Of a stretch of 64,000 bases of DNA, positions 7,061 to 24,586 are shown piece by piece. Position 1 is the first letter of the stretch, and every line of letters begins with the position of its first letter. Source of the stretch: Spiroplasma floricola 23-6 (GTDB lineage: Bacteria > Bacillota_I > Bacilli_A > Mycoplasmatales > Mycoplasmataceae); assembly GCF_002813555.1 (NCBI RefSeq), contig NZ_CP025057.1, forward strand, positions 1,042,001 through 1,106,000, in the 5' to 3' direction. Made by a program: the position numbers and the translations under genes. Below the pieces are notes generated by a model, which was given only the letters and a program-made list of their open reading frames with translations, was not told where the DNA came from and ran no database searches.

Positions 7061-9520
7061 TTAGTTTGAAGACTTATTTTTATTTTGTTCTTTTTTATAA
7101 ACTTTTTTTAATACAAAAAATAATAAAATAGATATTCCAAAACTTAAAGGAATTAAAAATAATGCCAGAATTTTTATCACTTTAGATTTATTATTTTTAA
7201 ATTGATTATCTTGATTTTTGCTATTACTTTCATCCTTTTTATTACTTAAAAGAGTTATTTTTAAATTTTCTCCATTATCATTGAATAATTCTAAATAACC
7301 TATTTTAGAATTATCAATTAAAGAAAAACTAAACTCATTGTCTGATTCTACAATTTTAATATTGTCATTATACTTTTTTAATTCATGATTACTTTTACTA
7401 TATTTAATAATCTCATCACTTAGTTCTATTTCTTTTTCAATTATTTCTTTAAAACTTTTAACTTTTATAACACTTTTTTGTTTTTTATAATTGATATTTA
7501 ATTCAAAAACTCCTTTATCTTTTGGAAATAAAATAATTTCAGATTTATTTTTAGTAAATAAAAGATTCCTTGAATTTGACTCTATTTTTATTTGGTCCTG
7601 ATCTAACTCTTCATAATTTAAAATTTTAATTAAATTTGATGTATTCATTTCACTAATAACTATTTTTTTATCTAACAGTATTGAGCTATTTGTATTAATC
7701 ACTTTTATTTTTACTTTTTTAGTTATTTTTGTTGTACTTGAAATTATTTCAATTTCAAATACACCAGTTATTGTTGATTTAATTGAGAGTTTATTCTTTT
7801 CAAATTTTGCATTTATATTTTTATTTCTATTCACAATAACCAAATTCTCTATTGAATTAGTATCTACATTTATAAAATCACTTTTACCTTTTTCAATAAC
7901 AATAAAATCTTTTTCTAATGAAAAGTAATCTTTTAGTTTTTTAACTTCCACTTCAATTATTTTCTTATTTATTGCATCTATTGAATCTAACTCAATAAAG
8001 CCTTTCCCTACTTTTAAAGCCTTTATTTCTAAAAGATTATTTCCTTGTTTTTTAACATTTATATTACTACTGTTTTTTATTTTTATATTTTTAAAACTCT
8101 CACCATTTATAATAAAAATTTTTCTTGTCTCGTTATTATTTATTTCTATTTTCTCTTCTGTTACTTTAATATATTTAAACTTCATTTCCTCTCCCACAAC
8201 AGGGCTTTCATATACAACTTTGAATTCATTAACTTCATAATTTTTACTTGTAGTTTCAAATTTAATGTCCTTTCAATTTGACATAAGAACATCCTCATCA
8301 AATTTTTCCTCTATATGAAAAATAGTTATATAAAAAGTTAGAATACCTCCATTAGGTTTTTTATATGTATATTTAAAAACTGCAGTTTCTTCAGAATTAA
8401 ATTTTTTTATAGATACTGAGTTTTCTAAATCATTATTATCAAAGTACACATCCTGATAGTTAATTTTATATTCATTAGATAAAAAATACTTTATTTTTTT
8501 ATGATTCTCATAAATATTTTTAAACTTACTTTTATATTTTAAGCCTATAGAGTTGTTTTTCTTATTGATTTCCTTTTCTATAAAAAATACTTTTATATTT
8601 TTTATAATTATTTTATTATTTTCATAAAAATCCACTATTCCAATAATTTTATTTTTCACAAATAAATCTTGATTTAGCTTAATTTTTAACTTTAAACTAT
8701 AATTTGTTTCTTTATTCAGGTTTAGAAATTTATAGAAATTAACATCATTAAATAAGAAACTCTCAAGATTCTCTCTTCTAGCAGAATAGAAATTATTAGA
8801 ATCTACATAATAAGTATAGTAATTCTCCTTTTTATCTTGAAAAAAATCACTTCTAGAAATAAAATTACTTTTAACTGATGTTAAAAGTAAACCACCTCTA
8901 GTTGGTCCTCCTAAAAAGGATTCAAGAGCTGCTTTATCAACTATATTTGGATCTGCTAAAATTTCTTCATTTATAGTTCCTGAAATTTCAACTCCCTCAT
9001 TATTTTGTTGATAAATCTTTTTAAACTTCAGATTTAATTTAGTAAAAATAAAAGTATCAGTTCATTCATCATGATAACTGTATTCTTTTTCAATTTCTTT
9101 TATTTGTTGTCTTTTCTCAAGTTGAATTTGAAAATTAAAATTCTCTTTTACTAAATTTTGATCTAAAGAACTCATTTCTTGATCTATAACTTTGGCATTT
9201 CTTTCTAAAACACTCTTAATATTTAATTCTAAACTGGAATCAAATCAATAATCTTTCATTGTCTCTAATTTGAGTTGATCTAAAGAAATAAACTCTTCAA
9301 TAGTTGATTTATAAATACTACTTTTTTCATTATGTTTTACTTCAACGCCTTTATCAGAAAATTTAGGAATTTCTAATAAATAATATGGTGCTTTAACTAT
9401 TAAATTATTTTTTGTAGATATATCATTTTCCATTAAATTAATAACTTCAAATTTTAATAAATTAGATGAGAAAAAACCGAAGTTAAAAAATAGAAATAGT
9501 AATTTAAAAGCTTTTATCAT
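7061..9520 (-). CDS. Large membrane-anchored surface protein of unknown function
   Basis: An 819-residue protein read through several TGA-encoded Trp codons. It begins with a basic, hydrophobic signal-like segment (MIKAFKLLFLFFNFGFF) and ends with a hydrophobic segment (KILALFLIPLSFGISILLFF) followed by a Lys-rich tail, a type I membrane topology with some 750 residues outside. The body is Asn/Lys/Ile-rich, looks strand-rich and repetitive, and lacks Cys lipobox features. The start is set by GGGAGG upstream. I recognise no domain; adhesin or other surface structure is only a guess. It lies 44 bases after rsmB. Confidence 0.85.
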
Positions 9521-18632: not shown

Positions 18633-19427
18633 TTAATAGAAAATATTTAAAAAATCTTTTCCACCACTTTTTTCAATTTTTTTAGTTAGAAAAAAAGTAT
18701 TATTAAGTAAAACTGCTCTATTTATAAAGGATTTATCAAAAGTCTCTTTTTTATTATTTAAGATATTTATCAATACACTCTCTTCTTTTTTCTTAAAACT
18801 TATTAACACGTTATTTTTATTTAAATAATGTATTCTTTTAAAATCCTGTTCATTATCTAAAACACTAATTATTTTAAAACTAAGATCAGTCAAAACAATT
18901 TCTTCATTTGATTTTTGAATTACAAAATTATTTTGAAATTGAATAATATCTACTAAATCTATTTTTATTTCTTTAATGAGTTTAATATTTTCATCAACTA
19001 ATAAAATCTTATTATCTCTTTTTATAATTAGTCCTTCATTTATTTTTTTTATTATTTGAAATTCTTCTAAATTTTCAATATTATTTAAATTTGTTGTAAA
19101 AACTTTTCCATTAATAATAAAGCTAATATATTTAGTATTATTAATAACTACAAAATTTTGAATATAATGTTCATAAATACCATAAACTTTTATATCAGTA
19201 TTAGAAATCATATCCATAGATGAAAAATGTGGATTTGGATGAGCTATAAATGTTCTTTCCAAATCTTGTTTTATTTTAATATTTTCTAAAAATATTTTTT
19301 TAGAAATTCAACATAATGTATTTATATTTCCATTTGGAATACTATCTACGAAATAAATATTTTCATCATCTAAAAAAATATTTTTTATTCACTCACTATT
19401 TTCTATTTTTCTTACTTTTAATTTCAA
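18633..19427 (-). CDS. Hypothetical protein with strand-rich repeats, TTG start
   Basis: A 264-residue protein containing TGA-encoded Trp (SEWIKN, LCWISK). The only suitable start is TTG at 19427, preceded by AAGGTGAT. The sequence is a succession of short hydrophobic strands and polar turns roughly 40 residues apart (KYISFIINGKVFTTNL, GLIIKRDNKILLVDEN, NFVIQKSNEEIVLTD), suggestive of a beta-propeller-like fold. That is inference; no catalytic motif is visible. Confidence 0.72.
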
Positions 19428-19452
19428 GTAAATCACCTTTTTAATTATAAAT

Positions 19453-19477
19453 TAAAAACACGATATTAATCGTGTTT
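19453..19477 (-). terminator. pgk terminator
   Basis: Stem AAACACGAT/ATCGTGTTT with loop ATTA (minus: TAAT), followed on the minus strand by T. Confidence 0.8.
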
Positions 19478-19485
19478 GTATCTAA

Positions 19486-20682
19486 TTATTTATTTTGAAT
19501 TGCTTCAACACCTGGTAATTTTTTACCTTCCATATATTCTAATGAAGCTCCTCCACCAGTTGATATATGAGTAAATTTGTCTTTAAATCCTAATTGAATT
19601 GCAGCTGCAGCTGAATCTCCCCCACCTATTAAAGTAAATGAGTCTTTTAGGTTAGCAATAGCTTCACAAACAGCTAATGTACCTTTATTATAGTGTTTAA
19701 ATTCAAATACTCCCATTGGTCCATTTCATGCTACTGTTTTTGCATCTTTTAAAATAGTTTTAAATAATTCAATTGATTTAGGACCGATATCTAATCCCAT
19801 TAAGTCATCTGGTAAGTCAACTCCTGTAATTGTTGGTTCAGTGTCTTTAAAATCACTGTTACATGCTGAATCAATTGGTAAAATAATTTTTCCATTAGCT
19901 TTTTCTAAATATTCTTTAGCTAAAGAAACTTTATCTTCTTCACACAATGATTTACCAATACTGTGATTTTGGGCTTTAAAGAAAGTATATGCCATTCCCC
20001 CACCAATTATAATTTTGTCAGCTTTTTCTAATAAATTATCAATAACTCCAATTTTATCAGAAACTTTTGCCCCACCAATAATTGCTACAAATGGATGCTC
20101 TGGTTTATCAATTCCTTTTGATAACATTTCTAATTCTTTTTCAACTAAAAATCCTAAGCAGCTTTCTGCTATATTTGAAGCAATTCCTACATTTGAAGCA
20201 TGAGCTCTATGAGCAGTTCCAAATGCATCATTTACAAATATATCTCCTAAACTAGCTCAGTATTTTCCTAATTGTGAATCGTTTTTTGATTCATATTTCA
20301 CAACTTCACCATTTTGAACATCTTCAAAACGTGTATTTTCAAATAAAAGAATTTCTCCTGCATTTAAGTTTTTAATTGCTGTTTCTAATTCTTCTCCTCT
20401 AGTTTGAGGAACAAATTTAATTGATTTTCCTGATAACTCTTCCAATTTTTTAGCAACTGGTGCTAAACTTTTTTTAGCTTTATCAGCTTCTTCTTTAATT
20501 CTGCTTAAATGTGAAAATAAAACAACTTTTGCTCCTTTTTCAGCTAAGTGATTAATAGTTGGCAGTGCTGCTCTAACACGATTATCATCTGTAATAACTC
20601 CATCTTTTAATGGGACGTTAAAATCAACTCTAACAAGAACAGTCTTTCCAGATACTTGAATATCATTTAATGTTTTTTTCAT
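19486..20682 (-). CDS. pgk: Phosphoglycerate kinase
   Basis: A 398-residue glycolytic enzyme making ATP and 3-phosphoglycerate from 1,3-bisphosphoglycerate. [20 protein letters not shown] plus [38 protein letters not shown] and the C-terminal GGGDSAAA are the standard motifs. Two Trp codons are TGA. The ribosome binding site GGAGAG lies in the short gap after the DUF4065 gene, so it is probably transcribed with gap and that gene. Confidence 0.97.
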
Positions 20683-20704
20683 TTTTTTGCTCTCCTATAC
20701 TTAA

Positions 20705-21217
20705 TTATTTTAAAACATTTTTTACTATAAAATCTATATAATGAAAAAAATTATTAGTATTTTCATTATGAAAATGAATAATGTCTTGATCTTTTATTAA
20801 ATTATTTCTACTAGGTTTATACAACTTTTTTCATGGAGTTTGTTCATGACAAATTGTTACAATATCTCATGACTTTAAATTTAATAGAAATTTAACTATT
20901 TCATAAGCTATTTTATTTTCTTGAGGAAAGTCTTTTTCTATTTCTAAATCAGCTTTTTCTAAATAAATTATAGGTATATCTGATTTTGAATAGATTGTAT
21001 GTTTCTTTCACAGTTCATAAATAACAGGACCTCACCTTCATGTTTCAAAATCTACATTTGCTATTTTTTCTCTAAATAATAAAAAATAAGAATAAACAAT
21101 ATAAATTATTTTTTGAATCTGAATTTGAGTTACTCTCTTAATACAATTTTGCTTTTTAACTTTAGCAATAACATTTAACATATAATTAATAAAATCTTCT
21201 TTAAAATAAAAAAACAT
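20705..21217 (-). CDS. Panacea (DUF4065, SocA-like) domain protein
   Basis: A 170-residue protein split by several TGA codons. It resembles the Panacea/DUF4065 family, which includes the Caulobacter antitoxin SocA and many antitoxins of diverse TA pairs: QIQKIIYIVYSYFLLF (the K(L)QKLLYY helix), FETWRWGPVIYELW at 57-70 (the E.W..GPV...V..E block), and SWDIVTICHEQTPWKK at 116-131 (the LS..TH...PW block). It starts after GAGGTG and sits between gap and pgk, genes normally adjacent. No toxin-like gene lies next to it, so it may be an orphan antitoxin or a protein of other function. Confidence 0.82.
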
Positions 21218-21277
21218 ATTTTCACCTCAATATTACTATCGTTGTAAAAATATGTTAAATATTTTATATTTAGAAAA

Positions 21278-22291
<1,014 letters not shown>

Positions 22292-22411
22292 ATTTAGTCG
22301 TTCCTTTCACGCTTTTATTTTATACCTTATTGCTTTATTTAGTGAATAAAATAATAACATTTTATTTCTATTTTTTCCATATGATATTTTTAATACTGGA
22401 AAATAATTCCA

Positions 22412-23311
22412 CTAATATCGCTTATTTTCACCTGTCATTTCAAATTCATTAGTTAATCCTTTGATTCTTTCTGTGAATCTAAGAGTTTTTTGTAATTCAA
22501 ATTTTTTTTGTTCTGGTCCAATTACTTTTTTATTTAAATAATATTTTTGTAGATCTGCTATAGAAAAGTTTGAAGTAAAATAAGTAATACATTTATTTTC
22601 TAATCTATGATTCAAAATACCAAATAATAATTCATCTCTACTTCAATCACTTACAATTTCTGCACCAATATCATCAAGTATTAAAATATCTACTTTAAGA
22701 CAATCATCATAAAATTTTGACAGTTCTGTTTTTTCTAATTGATTAAAAGTATCTTTAACTATTTTTACAAGCTTATTGACAGTTACAAAAATAACTTTTT
22801 TATCTTTTCTTGCATAAGTATTGGCCAATCGTTTCATTAAAAAAGTTTTACCAATACCTGGAGCTCCATATAAATAAAGACCCTTAAATGAATTATTTAC
22901 CATATTTTCTCTTATCTTTGTAAAAAGAGTTTTAGATTCTTGATTTAACTTATTTAAATCTAAAGATTCAATATATTCTCCCATTGTCTGAGTATTTTCT
23001 TTTAAATCATAATCTGCATATATTATATTTCTTAAAATTTTGTAATCTTTATTTTGAAAAGTTCAGTGTTTGCAATTTTTACTTGCTATATAAAATAAGT
23101 TATTTTTATATACTAGTTTTTGTTGAACACCAGGAATTGATTGTTTACAATATTTTATTTCTTCTTCTTTTTCACAATAAACATAATCATTTAAAAATCT
23201 ATTTATCACTAATATATTATTTTGTAAAATCTGATCGTCTATATTATATTTTTTAATTAGCTCTTTTAAATCTTTATGATTTTTTATATCATTTAAAGTA
23301 AATTTTAACAT
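22412..23311 (-). CDS. dnaI: Primosomal protein DnaI (helicase loader)
   Basis: A 299-residue AAA+ ATPase that loads the replicative helicase. Walker A is GAPGIGKTFL, Walker B LILDDIGAE, sensor-like TYFTSNFS, and the N-terminal third contains the Cys/His-bearing segment CKQSIPGVQQKLVY...CKH. The gene is split by two TGA-encoded Trp. It starts immediately after the TAG stop of dnaB with no gap, so the two are coupled, the usual dnaB-dnaI arrangement. Confidence 0.94.
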
Positions 23312-24586
23312 CTAATATTCTCCTCAATCTAATTTATCAAATGTCAAATCTTCTTTAACTTCAATTTTATAAGTTTCTTTATTTAAAGCATCATCTCATT
23401 TTGAACTTAATTCTGGTTTTAAATTAATATTAGATTTAATATTAACTTTTGATTTTTGATGAGCAACTTTTAAATATTCAAATGCCTCAGGAGCTTTTTT
23501 AAAGCCATTTTCAGACATTGTAGAAGCAATTTTATAAATATAGTTCGGAACTATTTGACCTTTATTTTTTAAGAAAACAAAATCAAATAAACAATTGATA
23601 ACTCCATTTCTTAATTTATATTTATTTTGTAAAATTTCAATTATTTCTTCAAATTTTTTATCTAACTGTTTTATTTTTTTATCTTTAGAAATTAATAAAG
23701 CTAATAAATATTCTTCTGGTTCAATTGTTTCCATTTCACTTAATTTTTGATTTTTTTGTTTTAACATATTTAATTCAACATCAAATTCTGGGATTGTTTC
23801 AGAGAATTCCTCTTTTTTAAAGATAAGTTTTGCAACTTCTTTATAAAATTTTGAGTTACTAAAAGAGCAAGAATCCTTTTCATAAATTTTTTTAATAATT
23901 TCTTTTATTTCAAATTGACTAATATTATAAGAACCAAAAACATCTTCAATTGCCTTTTTAATGATTTCATCATTTTCACTAATAGTAATATCTTCTTTTT
24001 TTAAAGCATTAAGTAAATTAGCATAATCTAAACCTTTTAATAAAGCATTTGTTCTTTTTGGTTTAGCTTTAATCATAGCAGCTTCAGATGTTTTTAATTC
24101 TTCAATCTCTCCAAAAACTTCAACAAATTTGGATGAAGTATCTTTGTAACCACTTTCTAAAGTTAACTCTCCTTCATCTCTAAAAGTAAATCTAATTAAT
24201 TCATAATCTTCTTTTTTTATTTTGCTCAATAAAGCATTATTAAATACTTTATTGTTAAAAAATTCTACTGGTTCTAAAGGTGAATATATATTAAATATTA
24301 TTGTATTTTTACTTTTATTTTCTAAAGTTCTTAATAAACCAAGAGCTTCTAATTTCTTGAAATATTTAGACAATATATTTTTAGAAATTCCTGTTATTTT
24401 AGATAATCTGGTATTTGATAAGGTTATTGTTTTAAATTCACTTATTATATAAGATTCATTTATTAATGTGAAATACAACGAAACTGCTTTTGATCCTATT
24501 ATTGGCTGATACAAGTAAGTTATTATTTTATTATTTGAACTATCTATTATATTTTTAAGAACAACTCTGTAACTAAACTCATCCAT
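23312..24586 (-). CDS. dnaB: Replication initiation and membrane attachment protein DnaB
   Basis: A 424-residue DnaB of the low-GC Gram-positive type (primosome assembly, not the helicase). The N terminus MDEFSYRVVLKNIIDSSNNK followed by YLYQPIIGSKAVSLY is typical, as are winged-helix and DnaB2/DnaD-like regions further on. TGA-encoded Trp occur near the C terminus (KWDDAL, LDWGEY). GGGAGG lies upstream of the ATG. Confidence 0.9.

What the first reader, a model, noticed from the sequence alone, without database searches (positions are those of the whole stretch)
20705..21217. Panacea (DUF4065) gene inserted between gap and pgk
gap and pgk are usually adjacent. Here a 170-residue Panacea-like gene lies between them, with its own good ribosome binding site and short spacers, so it should be expressed with glycolysis genes. 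Panacea proteins are mostly antitoxins paired with varied toxins, yet no toxin gene is nearby. It may neutralise a toxin or phage protein elsewhere, or have a new role.
Basis: partly seen in the sequence, partly recalled or inferred. Interest (0 to 1): 0.5.

Follow-up and report, generated by a model that had tools for sequence, protein, structure and literature searches.

The report
Lone antitoxin-like gene behind gap terminator
A single antitoxin-like (Panacea) gene sits between two sugar-burning genes in one branch of the insect bacterium Spiroplasma, inherited there for a long time without any toxin beside it, and its start signal is hidden inside the stop signal of the gene before it, so it is probably made rarely rather than together with its neighbours.

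Summary
The gene is real: window 20705-21217, minus strand, 170 codons, TGA = Trp. It is a Panacea (SocA-like) protein (Pfam 29.4 bits, cut-off 25.7), with a confident Panacea-like model. It is not a recent toxin-antitoxin insertion. The order gap-Panacea-pgk occurs in 17 of 20 genomes of the genus (16 intact, one broken) and in one genome of another genus. Three sister genomes lost the gene, and their nearest relative carries the broken copy. dN/dS is 0.07-0.33. No adjacent partner is seen. The two partner families found beside other mollicute Panaceas have no match in this genome, and ClpP is missing, which rules out SocA's known ClpXP route.

A terminator-like hairpin with a U-tract follows gap in all 44 family loci examined. 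In the 17 carriers of this genus, that hairpin contains the Panacea ribosome-binding site and start codon, and its U-tract encodes Phe-Phe. pgk keeps a promoter-like box at the Panacea 3' end. Codon usage and dS resemble poorly expressed genes. My best reading is a domesticated solo antitoxin-like binding protein, kept at low, conditional level and acting in trans. Its partner is unknown.

The parts
20705..21217 (-). Panacea (SocA-like, PF13274) gene, 170 codons, code 4
   Evidence: model pLDDT 93.4, pTM 0.90
21213..21256 (-). Hairpin: outer stem AACATATTTTTAC / GTGAAAATATGTT, inner stem CGATA / TATTG with tetraloop; contains the ribosome-binding site GAGGTG and the ATG of the Panacea gene; read here as the gap terminator
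   Evidence: (z = -6.3)
21203..21212 (-). U-rich tract after the hairpin; the same bases encode the start of the protein (Phe-Phe-Tyr)
   Evidence: TTTTTTTAT after the ATG is invariant in 17 of 17
20707..20712 (-). TAAAAT, -10-like box of pgk overlapping the Panacea stop codon
   Evidence: at -29 to -34 from the pgk ATG in 17 of 18 Panacea carriers (TATAAT at -34 in the other, G013); stays with pgk in G003, where another gene intervenes. The hexamer alone is weak evidence in such AT-rich DNA (one of the set turns up in 56-81% of shuffles)
21278..22291 (-). gap (glyceraldehyde-3-phosphate dehydrogenase), conserved upstream neighbour
   Evidence: product name recalled from the sequence
19486..20682 (-). 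pgk (phosphoglycerate kinase), conserved downstream neighbour
   Evidence: product name recalled from the sequence

Best explanation
A solo Panacea gene entered the space between the gap terminator and the pgk promoter in an ancestor of this Spiroplasma clade and has been inherited there since. Its start codon became fused with the 3' arm of the gap terminator. Shown: old, single-copy in this genome, under purifying selection, no partner nearby, start inside a conserved hairpin plus U-tract. Inferred: most transcripts stop after gap, and those that read through carry a closed start site, so the protein is made at a low and conditional level. Inferred and least certain: like stand-alone PanA antitoxins it acts by direct binding, in trans, to a toxin or to a phage or mobile-element protein encoded elsewhere or arriving from outside (an insurance antitoxin), and not through ClpXP.
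For: Order gap-Panacea-pgk in 17 of 20 genomes of the genus and in G024. One Panacea clade for the genus plus G024, support 0.996. dN/dS 0.07-0.33 in 8 pairs. The motifs QIQK, W-x-W/Y-GPV and H-x-Q-TPW are kept in the genus; by motif (my mapping) W62 and H124 match the two residues, Y56 and H120, whose change abolishes neutralisation in Bartonella PanA (PMC10440598, section 10 read). Hairpin at the start in 17 of 17, z = -6.3 in the window; terminator-like hairpin after gap in 44 of 44 family loci. C-ending codons 3 of 65 in the Panacea gene against 26 of 81 in gap, 17 of 104 in pgk and 7 of 97 in dnaI.
Against: No partner has been found. Fic-family and PemK-family genes do not track the gene; the two mollicute partner families are absent from G000. 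No expression data for the gene were seen. It was lost once without visible cost. In the three loss genomes pgk shows no promoter-like box and seems to be reached by read-through, so the hairpin may leak a lot. The hairpin is AU-rich, and the tool's terminator scan, which wants 3 G-C pairs and a loop of 3-8, did not list it.
Confidence: 0.5

Rival explanations
1. A domesticated housekeeping regulator or adaptor: the Panacea protein binds a cellular protein (for example delivers it to Lon or FtsH, or regulates an enzyme) and no longer has anything to do with toxins.
For: Long vertical inheritance at one place with purifying selection; a second genus keeps another solo Panacea at a fixed place between a DHH phosphoesterase gene and ftsY, so fixed solo Panaceas recur. 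SocA itself works as an adaptor (PMC5422525, passages).
Against: ClpP is below cut-off in 20 of 20 genomes of the genus, while 13 of 14 control genomes ring, so the SocA route is closed. The gene is dispensable: 3 of 20 lack it and 1 has it broken.
Confidence: 0.27
2. A co-expressed member of a glycolytic operon, coupling toxin control or a new role to glycolysis.
For: Same strand, 60- and 22-nt spacers, order kept in 17 of 20.
Against: Terminator-like hairpin after gap in 44 of 44 family loci; pgk promoter-like box at the gene's end; low-expression codon usage and dS. Family members without the gene mostly have gap and pgk next to each other anyway (26 of 30 loci read), so the pair is ancestral.
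Confidence: 0.08
3. A decaying relic of a toxin-antitoxin pair whose toxin was lost.
For: Solo gene; broken in G005 (about nine residues missing and a frame change) and gone in its three sister genomes.
Against: Intact in 16 of 20 genomes with dN/dS 0.07-0.33, 29 invariant residues and a full-length frame down to about 50% identity: decay is confined to one branch.
Confidence: 0.08

Closest known systems
Stand-alone PanA antitoxins (Kurata et al. 2022, PMC8832971; Ernits et al. 2023, PMC10440598)
   Same: Panacea domain only, no room for an HTH or PAD1 extension in 170 residues; two strands between helices 2 and 3; aromatic-GPV and His-x-x-x-PW motifs kept.
   Different: No partner gene; vertically inherited at one place, whereas the published PanA tree shows high mobility (section 5 part 1 read); start site inside a neighbour's terminator-like hairpin.
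SocA, the ClpXP adaptor antitoxin of Caulobacter
   Same: Homologous over residues 15-139 (NCBIfam 47.5 bits).
   Different: Score far below the equivalog cut-off of 190; ClpP absent from the genus; no toxin neighbour.
Solo Panaceas in other Mollicutes
   Same: Genus g29 of family f7 keeps a solo Panacea between a DHH phosphoesterase gene and ftsY. Kurata et al. report 25 DUF4065 homologues in one phytoplasma, only 3 in TA-like loci.
   Different: Different branch and place; I did not look for a start-site hairpin there.
Panacea pairs in Mollicutes (G056, G086, G047, G048, G090, G040)
   Same: Same domain; the G056, G086 and G090 proteins are at 27-34% identity to this one.
   Different: Those have an adjacent partner, either PemK-like in looks (Pfam only 13.1 bits, below cut-off) or a 110-135 residue family without a Pfam name.

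Membership tests
Panacea / SocA_Panacea (PF13274) | Pfam model score over the curated cut-off | tested here: met
   29.4 bits against 25.7 for the protein translated with code 4. In the six-frame genome search G000's own gene scored 19 bits, below the cut-off, probably because its TGA codons count as stops there
Panacea / SocA_Panacea (PF13274) | Compact helical fold with two strands between helix 2 and helix 3 | tested here: met
   AlphaFold2 model, mean pLDDT 93.4: H6-23, H31-48, E57-60, E63-65, then helices, against the published description
Panacea / SocA_Panacea (PF13274) | Fold match to a solved Panacea structure | tested here: inconclusive
   No Foldseek match at E <= 0.001; best second-look match 7yk3_D, an entry titled DarTG toxin-antitoxin complex, Z 6.7, rmsd 4.6, 136 aligned; no convincing PDB sequence relative
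[quoted passage not shown]
   The adjacent genes are gap and pgk in 16 of 17 genomes of the genus; in G003 a 264-codon ORF without Pfam match lies before pgk
PanAT type II toxin-antitoxin system | Neutralises a toxin when co-expressed | not testable with these tools
   Needs an experiment
SocA, ClpXP adaptor (type VI) | NCBIfam SocA equivalog cut-off | tested here: not met
   47.5 bits against 190
SocA, ClpXP adaptor (type VI) | ClpXP protease present | tested here: not met
   PF00574 (ClpP): 0 of 20 genomes over cut-off, control 13 of 14
Intrinsic (rho-independent) terminator | Stable hairpin followed at once by a U-tract | tested here: met
   17 of 17 carriers fold alike, -11.9 to -18.8 kcal/mol, U-tract invariant. 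Termination itself is not shown, and the scan did not list it
Known regulatory RNA family (Rfam) | Match to an Rfam model | tested here: not met
   No match at E <= 1 in window 19000-23500

The most novel reading that the evidence does not exclude
The hairpin is a dedicated regulatory RNA as well as the gap terminator: the conserved inner hairpin CGAUA-loop-UAUUG next to the ribosome-binding site is a binding site or sensor (for the Panacea protein itself, or for temperature or another signal), so that one element decides both whether transcription passes gap and whether the antitoxin-like protein is translated.
Probability: 0.2. Interest if true: 0.6.

Novelty: new variant of a known kind. 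Interest (0 to 1): 0.4.

Why it matters
Panacea proteins are studied as mobile antitoxins with swapping toxins. A Panacea that stays at one chromosomal place through a genus, without a toxin, offers a way to ask what a domesticated antitoxin does. One clade offers a natural experiment: the gene is broken in one genome and deleted in its three sisters, so genes lost with it are candidate partners. The overlap of a terminator with a start codon is a compact way to keep a protein scarce in a genome with few regulators.

Tried and rejected
Recent insertion: rejected, because gene order, the species tree and the RNA element agree on old vertical inheritance. Hidden partner next door: none; the only extra gene is a 264-codon ORF in G003, without Pfam match. 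Partner elsewhere: the PemK-looking family (A3) has no match at E <= 0.01 in any of the 20 genomes of the genus. The 110-135 residue family (A5) matches only G008 within the genus, beside that genome's second Panacea. Pfam PemK: 2 of 20 over cut-off; G000 17.2 bits, below cut-off. Pfam Fic: 13 of 20 over cut-off, none in G000, present in all three genomes that lost the gene, so it does not track. Two weak extra Panacea hits in G000 (E 0.012 and 0.117) were not pursued. Fold search: no solved Panacea relative stood out; the absence is not evidence. Rfam: nothing. PADLOC: nothing. A search of genome contigs with A1 returned only two distant loci, L064 and L065, not used further. The inner helix of the RNA shows no two-sided changes; only two outer pairs do, so the inner hairpin rests on sequence conservation and folding. 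Further pair types were no better than shuffles (217 of 500 reached them), and the number of pairs with two-sided changes was reached by 33 of 500. A genome-wide co-loss comparison was not made.

Full report
What is there. The window comes from a 1,284,130-base mollicute genome (window = G000:C1:1042001-1106000) that reads TGA as Trp. The finding's gene lies at 20705-21217 on the minus strand and encodes 170 residues. Pfam gives SocA_Panacea at 29.4 bits, over the cut-off of 25.7. NCBIfam gives a sub-cut-off relation to SocA (47.5 bits, cut-off 190). Two PHROG families of unknown function match at 4e-18 and 2.1e-16. AlphaFold2 with 17 aligned sequences gives mean pLDDT 93.4 and pTM 0.90, with two strands between helices 2 and 3, as described for Panacea (PMC10440598, section 10 read). 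Foldseek found no solved relative at E <= 0.001. The second-look aligner put 7yk3_D, from an entry titled DarTG toxin-antitoxin complex, first at Z 6.7, rmsd 4.6, 136 aligned. That is only suggestive.

Relatives and history. Of 149 genomes searched by protein, 26 match at E <= 0.01. Within the genus it is 17 of 20 (genus size). In all 17 the gene lies between gap and pgk. In G003 an extra 264-codon ORF lies between it and pgk. G024, of another genus, has the same order at 36% identity. Thirty further family loci were fetched by pgk (of 42 matches in 43 genomes): none shows the gene beside pgk, and 26 have gap within the fetched flank. The genus appears to be the Apis clade of Spiroplasma: one member, G011, is 1,560,007 bases in one contig, as published for S. 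clarkii (1.56 Mb, no plasmid; PMC6007557, passages). Other species names are recalled from genome sizes and were not tested.

A tree of gap plus pgk proteins groups the three genomes without the gene (G006, G012, G017; support 100) and makes G005 their sister (98). G005's copy lacks about nine residues at the end of helix 1 and changes frame between residues 102 and 110. So the gene decayed and was lost once. The place of G024 and of the g11 genomes is unresolved (support 30), so the exact time of gain is open. In a tree of 40 Panacea proteins (10 of the 16 intact genus members, G024, 4 distant hits, and 25 of the 30 loci), the genus and G024 form one group with support 0.996.

Selection and expression level. 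In eight pairs, dN/dS of the gene is 0.069-0.329, in the range of its neighbours. Its dS is higher than that of gap and of pgk in 8 of 8 pairs (for example 1.29 against 0.21 and 0.28 in G018-G007) and nearer to that of dnaI. C-ending codons in six amino acids make up 3 of 65, against 26 of 81 in gap, 17 of 104 in pgk and 7 of 97 in dnaI. Both point to low expression. In S. diminutum the glycolysis genes are at or above the 75th percentile of expression (PMC5726471, passages); I saw no value for the Panacea gene.

The start site is inside a hairpin. The first 26 alignment columns after the gap stop vary freely (1 invariant), while the next 40 columns up to the ATG hold 16 invariant ones. In 17 of 17 carriers of the genus the stretch folds into a like structure: an outer stem (AACAUAUUUUUAC / GUGAAAAUAUGUU in the window), an inner stem (CGAUA / UAUUG), then a U-tract that is also the codons for Phe-Phe. 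The inner stem is altered in G008, G011, G013 and G015. The window's fold is -15.3 kcal/mol against a shuffle mean of -4.5, z = -6.3. On the alignment, 93.3% of cells pair, against 35.7-61.7% for slid versions. Two outer pairs show changes on both sides (U-A to A-U and C-G; A-U to C-G); 0 of 500 shuffles reach the percentage paired and 1 of 500 the covariation score. But 33 of 500 reach the number of such pairs and 217 of 500 the number of pair types. A covariance model finds the element once in each of the 17 carriers (E <= 1.7e-6); the next matches among 60 genomes are at E 0.0032 or worse. The carriers' own sequences built the model, so this shows uniqueness, not discovery. Rfam has nothing.

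It is most simply the gap terminator. In 44 of 44 family loci with the gap 3' end in hand, a hairpin followed by a U-rich stretch lies just after gap. Best energies run from -5.6 to -22.0 (median -13.9) against a median of -2.1 in 132 simple base shuffles, three per locus; in one locus (L043) a shuffle did better. The three genomes without the gene keep a long hairpin with the same outer arms and U-tract. In G024 a plain terminator-like hairpin ends before the start codon. The tool's own terminator scan did not list the window's hairpin, because it asks for three G-C pairs and a loop of 3-8. At the other end, TAAAAT stands 29-34 bases before the pgk ATG in 17 of 18 carriers (TATAAT at -34 in the other, G013) and in none of the three loss genomes. 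A hexamer of the set occurs in 56-81% of shuffles, so presence alone is weak; the fixed position, and its staying with pgk in G003, speak for a promoter. In the loss genomes pgk seems to depend on read-through, so the terminator must leak there.

No partner. Other mollicute Panaceas do have adjacent partners. One is a 134-200 residue protein with a PemK-like look (Pfam 13.1 bits, below cut-off) in G056 and G086. The other is a 110-135 residue family in genomes such as G047, G048, G090 and G040. The first has no match in the genus. The second matches only G008 there, next to a second Panacea. Fic and PemK do not follow the gene. ClpP is missing from the whole genus, which closes SocA's ClpXP mechanism (PMC5422525, passages). 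Only around half of published DUF4065 proteins were found in TA-like pairs (PMC8832971, section 5 part 1 read), so a solo Panacea is not by itself strange.

How it most likely works. Shown: an old, selected, solo Panacea gene whose start is enclosed in a conserved terminator-like hairpin. Inferred: low and conditional expression, by leak past the terminator or by a promoter I could not identify; the scan lists TTAACA-17-TAATAT inside the hairpin, a weak match in AT-rich DNA. Inferred: action by direct binding, since the domain stands alone and the motif residues matching those needed for neutralisation elsewhere are kept (W62 for Y56, H124 for H120; my mapping by motif). The target may be an incoming toxin or phage protein, which would explain loss in one lineage, or a cellular protein.

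Novelty. No paper in the library holds both DUF4065 and Spiroplasma. The only paper holding both SocA and Spiroplasma is, by its title, an unrelated methods guide (listing). The main texts of Kurata and Ernits hold none of the words Mollicutes, Spiroplasma, Tenericutes or Mycoplasma, though Kurata names a phytoplasma as a Mollicute bacterium. I rate it a new variant of a known kind.

Noticed in passing
L133, L134, L137 (genus g29 of family f7), about 1399-1986: A solo Panacea gene kept at a fixed place between a DHH phosphoesterase gene and ftsY; PF13274 hits near base 7,300 of the contig recur in several genomes of that genus. A second case of a vertically kept solo Panacea.
   Followed up: partly
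L022, L032 (G086), L023, L031 (G056): Panacea genes overlapping or abutting a 134-200 residue partner with a PemK-like look, repeated several times in small genomes.
   Followed up: partly
L109, L116, L117, L024: A second partner family of 110-135 residues beside Panacea genes, without a Pfam or NCBIfam name.
   Followed up: partly
L034, L035, L036 (G006, G012, G017), gap-pgk spacer: The deletion that removed the Panacea gene seems also to have removed the pgk promoter-like box, leaving pgk behind a long hairpin with a U-tract.
   Followed up: partly
L128 (G016), G003:C1:894108-894434, G008:C1:1103731-1103937: Second Panacea genes in three genomes of the genus; the G003 one lies about 2.2 kb from a Fic-domain match.
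   Followed up: no
L017:664-1458: A 264-codon ORF without Pfam match lies between the Panacea gene and pgk in G003 only.
   Followed up: no
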